Assembly (NCBI RefSeq): GCF_029633865.1
Contig: NC_079224.1
Coordinates: forward strand, 20,099,967-20,163,966
Length of the DNA stretch: 64,000 bases
Direction: 5' to 3'
From: Lampris incognitus
Taxonomy: Eukaryota > Chordata > Actinopteri > Lampriformes > Lampridae
This document shows, in pieces, positions 22,701-25,700 of the stretch (positions are counted from its first letter, which is position 1; each line of letters begins with the position of its first letter). The notes below the pieces were generated by a model. That model did no database searches. It saw only the letters and a program-made list of their open reading frames with translations, and had not been told where the DNA came from. Both the position numbers and the translations under genes were made by a program.

Positions 22701-25700
22701 CATTGTGACAATATAGCCCGTCAGCATCTCTCTGAAGTCAGCAGCTGCAGCCAGGAACGGGCTTTAGCTGCTGGTGAAAGTCATGCACATGCAGGTACGA
22801 GCCCCGAATAACTACTGAAGGGGGATAACAGTTCAATAGCTTTGTGGAAAGACTGATGTCACACAGAGAGACTTTCTCAAAAGAGGAGCATTTACAGCTT
22901 GCACAGGGGAATAGGATTTTAGGACACAATAATTTAGATTAACCTGTATGGCTTGAGTCTGGATCTGGTGTGGCAGTTTAGTTATATTATATAATTCCCT
23001 AAACAACCTCACATCCGTCCAACACTTATCGCCACCACCCTCAAGGGGCCATTTGCCCAACTGTCATCATAAATGAGAAAATGCTCTACACTGAACTGGC
23101 TGATGAAATCCATCTTCATTAAGTTACTCAACAGATGGACTGACATATATGAAAAAGACAGGGCAATCACAGGTGAAGGTATTTTGATTGATTTATATAG
23201 ATAGATAGACAGACAGACAGACAGACAGACAGACAGACAGACAGAGCGATACACAGAGAAACAGACAGAGCGATAAACACAGAGAAACAGACAGACAGAG
23301 AAAGAAAGAACAGCAATCAGAGACTGACAGACAGACAGACAGACAGACAAAGAACGGCAGCCAGAGACTGATAGACAGACAGAGAGAGAGACAGACAGAC
23401 AGAACGACAGAGCTAGACAGACAGACAGAGAAAGAACGGCAGCCAGAGAGACTCAGACAGACAGACAGATGGAGACAGACAGAGACAGAGACAGACAGGC
23501 AGACAGAAAGAGGGACAGAGACAGACAGACAGAGAGCTAGCCAAAATGACAGAGAGAAAAACAGCTCTTGTAGACGTACCGCCCACAGACATGATGTCAC
23601 ATATGCAGGCCAGTCTAGTTTGGCTCGTAAATCACCAGTATTACTGGGGCGTCTATGGCCTCGGAGGGCAGTAACGTCTTATTATTACACCCCGCTAACA
23701 ACATAGTGCCACATCCATCTACTACACCAACACCGTGCGACTCTAAAGAAAGAAATTTTCTTCCTGAGTTCCAGCATGTACTGTGGGTTAATCTCACTGT
23801 AGTGAAAGTTCAGTGAGTTGCCATCACTGGATATCACGCCCAAAATCCCATGTTATGGTTCTGTCTGAATCCAGACATGACACTCCATGTAACCGTGTCC
23901 CTCAGACAAGTCCATCTCCTCCCCTTCGTGTTTTGTGCCAAGGAAGATAGAGCTGTGTTTACAGAGAAGGCATTAGCAGATCATGCTCAGAGGGATGTGT
24001 GGTGAGGTAAATCTCCACAGCCCTGACAGCTCATATGCATATGTCCTGGCTTTCCACTTGTCTAACAAATCTGGAGGTGCATGTGTTTGAGCATGTGTAT
24101 ATTTATGAGTGTCCTAAATTTCACCTGGCCTGCCTTCATTTAAGCAGCAGCCTCCTCCGACGGAGCACATGGCACATTCATTAACCCGATTAGAGGAGTA
24201 TCATCAATAGTGGGGTGCAGGTTGAATTCCCTAATTATTTCTCATGATCAATCTTTATAGGAGTATTTATCTAAAAAAGTTTAAAAAAGAAATAGATGGT
24301 TTTGTGTGTAAGCTTTGGTACTGATACTAGCTTTGTGGTACTAAATACTTCAAAACATCAACATCTTGGATTCTGGATACATTCTGATTCTACACTCCCA
24401 CATGAAAAACAATTTATTTTATTTGATAATTAAATAAGTCAGTGATATTTTTTCTGATATTTAGAAATTGTATGGATTGAAGGTATCAAAACTGAAGTAT
24501 AACACTCAATCCTATACTATTTCTATCATGTTATTTTACACTGTGACCGAACATAGCTTTGTCTCTTTTTACTGTTGAATTATACTTTACTGTACTGTTC
24601 CTATGATGCGTCTTCTTCGCAAACGGGCTGCATGAGGTGGAGTCCCAGGTTACCTGAGTTCTGGGGGTATGCAGGTCCTCCGTTGAGGTGGGGCTGCTGG
24701 GAGATGGAGAACTGGGAGGAGACGGAGGGCGCACGGCGGTAGGTGCCGGTGGCTGACACCATGGAGGCCGAGGAGGTGGTGGAGGAGGAGTTGTGACGGG
24801 AGATTTGGCGGGAGATGGTGCCAAATTGGGACATGGGAATGGGGCCTAGACCTGGGCCCTGGGGAACGGATGCTGGGACTGTCACCGCTGTCACAGGAGG
24901 AAAAAGGAGGCGCTGGTTAAATGGTTGTGGTGATCGCAAATGACAGACAAATAATTTTTGGCAACAAAAGCATTTTTTATATATACTATATATATATATA
25001 TATGTCTCTCAGTTGTCATAAAAATAGGGTTAGCTAACAGACAACATGAAAACAATATTTATTTGCAGAAATCAGAATGTGCAGTAGTTTATGTGAAGCT
25101 CTCCCTCTTTTATATATTGTATCTACAAGTTATCTCATGTTGCACTTTTCTAAGTACATCAAGCAGAGTGTCACTAAGTATCAATATTACACATTGTAGT
25201 CATATAGGACAAAACCCAGATGATATAACATACTGTAGCGAATTCGGGGGACAATGCAACCACAGGAACTGCCGCGGCCGGGAAGCAAACCCGTATCGCC
25301 CGCACCGCAGGAGACATCGCTAACCACTCGACTAAAGGGTCAGACCCGCCAGCCAGCGTCAGCGTGTCTTCTTATCCATGCACGTTACACTACTCCCCTC
25401 CTTTGGGAAGCGCATCCCCGTGCTTAAGCATATTCACGCCTCAGGGCGCATACGCTTCCGATGGCCTTACGGTCGCTCCATTCCACTTCTGACACCAATG
25501 TAGCGAATTGGGGGACAACACAACCACAGGAACTGCCGCGGCCGGGAAGCGAACCCGTATCGCCCGCGCCGCAGGAGACATCGCTAACCACTCGACTAAA
25601 GGGTCAGACCCGCCAGCCAGCGTCAGCGTGTCTTCTTATCCATGCACGTTACACTACAAGCAATCACAGCTTTGATTTGTTGATCATTACATCATATTAT

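What the first reader, a model, noticed from the sequence alone, without database searches (positions are those of the whole stretch)
25234..25658. Miniature LTR retrotransposon whose LTRs carry a tRNA-like pol III promoter
Seen: two 160-bp direct repeats; between them 105 bp that, on the minus strand, opens with TGGTGTCAGAAGTGG and closes with AAAGGAGGGG. The first is complementary to the CCACTTCTGACACCA end of vertebrate tRNA-Leu (from memory of tRNA-Leu CAA/CAG); the second is a polypurine tract abutting the 3' repeat. That is the TRIM layout. Each repeat also contains TAGTCGAGTGG (perfect A-box consensus) and GGGTTCGCTTCCC (B box with one change) at normal tRNA spacing. Plant Cassandra TRIMs carry a 5S rRNA gene in their LTRs; an animal counterpart with a tRNA-like LTR would be a parallel solution in which a pol III unit sits inside a reverse-transcribed mini-element. 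Inference: it may be transcribed by pol III and moved by a larger LTR partner.
Basis: partly seen in the sequence, partly recalled or inferred. Interest (0 to 1): 0.82.

Follow-up and report, generated by a model that had tools for sequence, protein, structure and literature searches.

The report
Helenus-type mini retrotransposon in a fish
The window holds one copy of a very abundant miniature retrotransposon whose end repeats carry a tRNA-like promoter, a kind already described in 2024; its relatives in the same genome include hybrids with a protein-coding Gypsy element, which point to an element that may move it.

Summary
The element (minus strand, 25234-25653) has LTRs of 155 and 156 bp (TGTAACG...TTCGCTACA), 109 bp between them, a tRNA-Leu primer site (17 of 18 nt here, 18 of 18 in listed relatives), a polypurine tract, and near-matching 4-bp target copies (GTAG/GTAT). 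Both LTRs carry A and B boxes 43 nt apart.

The window's genome (1.48 Gb) holds 4,367 LTR-PBS-internal junctions of this family (up to 2 mismatches). Of 55 chains with both ends intact, 31 have exact 4-bp NTAN duplications; shuffled pairing gives 8.2. It is a real LTR retroelement, not a tandem SINE.

The kind is published: it fits Kojima's Helenus (2024). What my searches did not show in print is the evidence for a helper. Twelve of 14 loci found by one exact pattern have a Gypsy LTR ('Y') at the 5' end, then this element's internal region and LTR; 8 of those 12 have exact duplications. One reciprocal hybrid (this element's LTR, Gypsy RT, RNase H and integrase domains, Y LTR) has GTAT on both sides. 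This suggests co-packaging with Gypsy RNA and strand transfer at the shared primer site. Pol III transcription is untested.

The parts
25654..25657 (-). 5' target-site copy GTAG
   Evidence: differs by one base from the 3' copy
25499..25653 (-). 5' LTR, 155 bp, TGTAACG...TTCGCTACA
25588..25598 (-). A box TAGTCGAGTGG in the 5' LTR, fits TRGYNNARNNG
25545..25555 (-). B box GGTTCGCTTCC in the 5' LTR, one change, 43 nt after the A box start
25480..25497 (-). primer-binding site, complementary to 17 of the last 18 nt of tRNA-Leu (CCA added)
25390..25498 (-). internal region, 109 bp, non-coding; relatives have about 8 nt more
25390..25404 (-). polypurine tract and following bases, AAAGGAGGGGAGTAG
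25234..25389 (-). 3' LTR, 156 bp
25324..25334 (-). A box in the 3' LTR
25281..25291 (-). B box GGTTTGCTTCC in the 3' LTR, two changes
25230..25233 (-). 3' target-site copy GTAT

Best explanation
This is one copy of a Helenus-type TRIM: a non-coding LTR retroelement (420 bp here) whose LTR holds a tRNA-like A/B-box pair. Shown by sequence: LTR-PBS-PPT-LTR layout, 18-nt tRNA-Leu primer site in relatives, 4-bp NTAN target duplications, solo LTRs and tandem arrays, and two-way hybrids with a Gypsy-like family ('Y') that has protease, RT, RNase H and integrase domains. Inferred: pol III starts upstream of the A box in the 5' LTR and reads through the element; the RNA is packaged in Gypsy particles and primed by tRNA-Leu; cDNA is completed by strand transfers and integrated by a Gypsy integrase. 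When Gypsy and TRIM templates share a particle, the plus-strand strong-stop DNA of one can anneal through the common 18-nt primer site to the minus strand of the other, giving copies with different LTRs at the two ends.
For: Layout and boxes. Family size: 2207+2160 junctions with up to 2 mismatches, control 0; LTR first-look candidates 1214 and 1797 for subfamily B. Target duplications: 31 of 55 exact, 13 of 55 with 3 of 4, 11 of 55 with fewer; shuffled pairing mean 8.2, maximum 16 in 2000; no exact 5-7 bp repeats. Primer: tRNA-Leu genes of the same genome. Gypsy Y: same 18-nt primer site, LTR TGTAGCG...TTCGCCACA, CCHC knuckle, RVP, RVT_1, RT_RNaseH, Integrase_H2C2, Integrase_p58_C. Hybrids: 14 exact junctions; 12 of 14 are LTR_Y-INT-TRIM LTR; 8 of 12 with exact duplications, read by eye (P about 7e-5 at the 15% chance rate). 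Reciprocal hybrid with GTAT on both sides and RVT_1, RT_RNaseH and rve domains.
Against: No transcription data. No Rfam tRNA match to the window element at E up to 10, nor to the LTRs in the 15 relatives scanned (its one tRNA hit, below gathering score, lies beyond the LTR of L089). The B box lacks the usual A at one position in all 8 LTR representatives and has 1-2 changes in each; A and B boxes rank only 33 and 26 of 145 windows for conservation. Lack of TTTT in the sense strand (24 of 26 full copies; shuffles would have it in 55%) is not specific, because AAAA is equally rare (lacking in 25 of 26). The window copy itself has a 3-of-4 target duplication. Two of 14 junction loci lacked LTR_Y, and 4 of 12 hybrids lacked exact duplications (two had 3 of 4, two had a damaged left end); one exact case lies in an AT repeat. 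In the reciprocal L117 and in L114 some 260-280 nt after the primer site gave no match to the Y copy used as query, and the right end of L114 was not found. Several other LTR families share the primer site, so Y may not be the only helper. Its enzymes are inferred from domains, not assayed.
Confidence: 0.85

Rival explanations
1. Two tandem tRNA-headed SINE copies that mimic LTRs.
For: The repeats carry A and B boxes, and tRNA-headed SINE-like repeats are common in the window.
Against: TG...CA ends, primer site and polypurine tract between the repeats, exact 4-bp duplications directly at the ends of both solo and paired units.
Confidence: 0.02
2. A TRIM whose LTR boxes are relics or chance: it is transcribed by pol II like other LTR elements and only recalls a tRNA.
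For: Degenerate B box, no tRNA match by Rfam, only modest box conservation.
Against: A perfect A box with a near B box at tRNA-like spacing is unlikely by chance; no AATAAA or TATAAA in the window element and no AATAAA in 26 full copies, whereas LTR_Y has AATAAA; the published group shares the boxes.
Confidence: 0.2
3. The hybrid copies arose by DNA recombination after insertion, so they say nothing about co-packaging.
For: Some composites (L024, L115, L116, L129) look like concatemers; LTR_X hybrids L022 and L024 show no clear duplication.
Against: 8 of 12 Y hybrids and the one reciprocal whose two ends were found have identical 4-bp flanks; recombination between separate insertions would pair unrelated flanks (about 15% chance each).
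Confidence: 0.12

Closest known systems
Helenus (animal TRIMs with tRNA-like LTRs; zebrafish LTR-11_DR), Kojima 2024, PMC10886601
   Same: Size, two LTRs with A/B boxes, primer site and polypurine tract, 4-bp duplications, tRNA-Leu among vertebrate primers, thousands of copies and tandem arrays in zebrafish, Gypsy proposed as the helper in animals.
   Different: For animal members the paper infers the helper from primer-site similarity (for a fungal one also from shared internal sequence); here hybrid insertions with a coding Gypsy are seen.
Cassandra (plant TRIM with 5S rRNA in the LTR)
   Same: Pol III-type promoter inside the LTR of a TRIM.
   Different: 5S versus tRNA-like; no 5S match here.
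Template-switch complexes of Triticeae LTR elements (Sabot and Schulman 2007, PMC1950507)
   Same: Composite insertion flanked by one target duplication, taken as one integration of a switched cDNA (abstract and passages).
   Different: Those are three-LTR complexes explained by switching between R regions; here most hybrids have two unlike LTRs joined at the primer site, between a coding and a non-coding family.

Membership tests
Helenus | Short non-coding element (311-1263 bp) with two LTRs | tested here: met
   420 bp in the window; 26 full copies, the window's included, of 396-433 bp
Helenus | tRNA-derived sequence with A and B boxes in the LTR | tested here: inconclusive
   Boxes met at 43-nt spacing; no tRNA covariance match; tRNAscan-SE not available
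Helenus | Primer site and polypurine tract between the LTRs | tested here: met
Helenus | 4-bp target duplication (animal members) | tested here: met
   31 of 55 exact at family level; window copy 3 of 4
Helenus | Sequence relationship to published fish consensus (LTR-11_DR) | not testable with these tools
Cassandra | 5S rRNA sequence in the LTR | tested here: not met
   no Rfam match in the window at gathering scores
SINE (tandem) | Single tRNA-headed unit with a tail, not paired by primer site and polypurine tract | tested here: not met
   paired units with primer site between them, and 4-bp target copies directly after TACA
TRIM | LTR-PBS-PPT-LTR without coding capacity | tested here: met

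The most novel reading that the evidence does not exclude
A pol III-driven mini-element travels as a satellite of coding Gypsy elements and trades LTRs with them in both directions at the shared tRNA-Leu primer site, so that its hybrid insertions are a readable record of co-packaging and name its helper; the exchange even puts a tRNA-like promoter LTR in front of a Gypsy coding region (C25:3144600-3151600).
Probability: 0.6. Interest if true: 0.65.

Novelty: new member of a known kind. Interest (0 to 1): 0.5.

Why it matters
Kojima 2024 states that it is not known how a TRIM's dependence on its autonomous element is maintained and that no autonomous partner of Cassandra is indicated. Hybrid insertions with a single target duplication offer a sequence-only way to find the helper of such a TRIM, and the same logic could be tried on Cassandra.

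Tried and rejected
Exact pattern scans of viral contigs and prokaryote genomes, and searches of plasmids and phages, gave no match, as expected for fish DNA. ARAGORN and Rfam at gathering scores found nothing in the window. RNA folding of the internal region and of two LTR pieces was no better than shuffles. The 99-residue exon peptide had no match in PDB sequences at E up to 0.1; the Abl-interactor name is recalled. L097's nested 4.4-kb element was dropped as a helper because its primer site begins TTGGCGACGAGG. L098 and L099 share the tRNA-Leu site, but the 5 ORFs of theirs that I searched gave no Pfam match at E up to 0.01. The absence of TTTT runs was set aside as unspecific. The retained-flap idea for the extra G next to the 5' LTR (8 of 13 three-of-four cases; test) is post hoc.

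Rows dropped before the count of 55: L001-L008 and L047 (overlapping the window or L009-L014), L051, L052, L063, L066 (same places as loci kept), and 44 chains with an incomplete end.

Full report
What is there. On the minus strand of 25230-25657 the window holds a complete miniature LTR element. The repeats are real: the two LTRs differ by 4 substitutions and one 1-nt gap. Comparing flanks of relatives fixes the ends: the LTR runs from TGTAACG to TTCGCTACA. The right target copy is GTAT, so this insertion has a 3-of-4 duplication. The element lies between two exon-like stretches (24600-24900 and about 26010-26115, minus strand, translated) that resemble ABI1/ABI2 from memory; no database match confirmed this.

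Primer site. TGGTGTCAGAAGTGG occurs once without mismatch in the window. In relatives the site reads TGGTGTCAGAAGTGGGAT (all 100 places listed, the best of 4,367, are exact). The genome has 39 exact copies of GGTTCGAATCCCACTTCTGACA. I fetched 8 of the 39: 8 of 8 match the Rfam tRNA model above its gathering score, and ARAGORN of 8 tRNA-Leu(CAG). With CCA added, their ends are complementary to the 18-nt site. A published list of tRNA fragments contains TCGAATCCCACTTCTGACACCA; the passage seen does not name the tRNA (PMC12025293, one passage).

Promoter boxes. Each LTR has a perfect A box and a B box with one or two changes, 43 nt apart. The 8 LTR representatives (clusters at 88% identity from 115 complete LTRs) keep recognisable boxes, A with 0-1 and B with 1-2 changes, but conservation there is only moderately above the LTR average. 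The tRNA fold is not kept. LTR_Y has no A-B pair and has AATAAA. A pol III start is therefore plausible and untested.

Family. The window's genome is held: 1.48 Gb, 537 contigs. An LTR-PBS-internal junction pattern with up to 2 mismatches gives 4,367 places, control 0. From 64 loci including the window (duplicates dropped), 55 chains with both ends intact were found: 26 LTR-INT-LTR, 26 single LTRs and 3 others; 44 more chains had an incomplete end. Exact 4-bp duplications occur in 31 of 55 (17 of 26 full, 12 of 26 single, 2 of 3 others), all of the form NTAN, against 8.2 expected when flanks are re-paired. The loci were picked as best matches to the window copy's LTR or internal region, so this sample is not random. 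Median LTR-LTR identity of the 26 full copies, the window copy included, is 0.95; the window copy's is 0.974. With assumed rates of 3e-9 to 1e-8 per site per year the window copy would be about 1-4 million years old (the rates are assumptions). A second LTR subfamily (B; the member L020 is about 82% like the window's over its first 123 bases) has 40 of 42 reported matches at 98-100% identity to that member, a sign of recent activity. Tandem arrays with a 267-bp period occur, as reported for LTR-11_DR.

Helper. Primer sites followed by C or T instead of the TRIM's usual G number 510 (the first 100 were listed). Of 20 that I fetched, by eye 8 look related to this TRIM (L080, L081, L085, L086, L087, L089, L091, L093) and the rest fall into several other groups. 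One family, Y, at C2:80990700-81002300, has a 326-bp LTR with ends like the TRIM's (TGTAGCG...TTCGCCACA), a CCHC knuckle and protease, RT, RNase H and integrase domains (the rve core match there is below its curated cut-off), so it is Gypsy-like; that copy is interrupted by another element. The exact junction 'LTR_Y end + primer site + TRIM internal' occurs at 14 places. I examined all 14 (13 fetched, plus L015): 12 of 14 are LTR_Y, TRIM internal, TRIM LTR; L102 has a TRIM LTR in front, and L104 only an inverted piece of one further upstream. Of the 12, 8 have exact 4-bp flanks (TTAT, ATAC, ATAT four times, ATAA, GTAT; one of these, L106, lies in an AT repeat), 2 have 3 of 4 (L103, a tandem whose last LTR ends like Y's, and L113), and 2 have a damaged left end (L015, L109); these were read by eye. 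For comparison, the Y family's own junction appears 26 times among the 47 places. The reverse junction (TRIM LTR followed by Y internal) occurs exactly 4 times; all 4 were fetched. L117 has a subfamily B LTR (98.7%), then about 280 nt that, the primer junction apart, did not match the Y query, then Y internal sequence at 95%. Its far end (L118) carries RT, RNase H and integrase domains and a Y LTR, and both flanks read GTAT. L114 has a TRIM LTR followed likewise by Y-like sequence after an unmatched stretch, but its right end was not found; L115 and L116 are longer composites. A copy with two unlike LTRs cannot breed true by ordinary reverse transcription, so these hybrids should be separate events (inference).

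Mechanism. Plus-strand strong-stop DNA ends in a copy of the primer site and completes the second jump by annealing there (established knowledge of LTR elements). If TRIM and Gypsy Y templates sit in one particle, the jump can land on the other minus strand, giving just the two hybrid types seen. Sabot and Schulman 2007 used the same criterion, one target duplication around a composite, for template switching (PMC1950507, abstract and passages). Other families also join: LTR_X-TRIM junctions are exact at 3 places, but L022 and L024 show no clear duplication, so they are weaker.

Known or new. Kojima 2024 (PMC10886601; I read parts 1-4 of 6 and the figure legends and tables) described Helenus in fishes and other groups. 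The present element meets the tested features of that group, with the tRNA origin of its LTR sequence left inconclusive. Text searches for Helenus, TRIMp3 and LTR-11_DR returned no other relevant paper. The listings of searches on TRIMs and on switching and co-packaging showed no title or abstract start on Helenus-Gypsy hybrids; of those papers only Kojima 2024 and PMC1950507 were opened. The library holds open-licence papers only. I therefore rate it a new member of a known kind, with a helpful clue to its helper.

Noticed in passing
L020 and L031 (G000 C3:77774800-77777900, C2:10010000-10013100): Palindromic forms: LTR, the first 60 or so bases of the internal region, then an inverted LTR; flanks GTAT/CTAT and ATAG/CTAG.
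   Followed up: partly
25654 and relatives L017, L026, L032, L036, L050, L056, L073: In 8 of 13 three-of-four target duplications (the window's included) the mismatch is a G next to the 5' LTR, the same as the last base of the internal region; possibly a retained cDNA-end flap (post hoc).
   Followed up: partly
L089 (G000 C1:52066240-52066480): An LTR end is followed by the primer site and then more sequence complementary to a tRNA-Leu-like end, as if the primer tRNA had been copied too far; weak Rfam tRNA hit, below gathering score, and none by ARAGORN.
   Followed up: partly
window, e.g. 11889-12297, 13401-13829, 16976-17400, 28260-28670, 45673-46094, 63660-63983: A SINE-like repeat of several hundred bases, several copies of which have A and B boxes 44 nt apart, in both orientations.
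   Followed up: no
34179-35257: Perfect inverted repeat, arms of 476 nt with 127 nt between, with inverted copies of parts at 20327-20591 and 21192-21531; perhaps a DNA transposon.
   Followed up: no
8583-8964: Inverted repeat with 181-nt arms, 99% complementary, 20 nt apart.
   Followed up: no
L097 1138-5604 (minus): Nested LTR element of about 4.4 kb with an open frame of 1354 codons, a likely 5-bp duplication ATAAG and a different primer site.
   Followed up: partly
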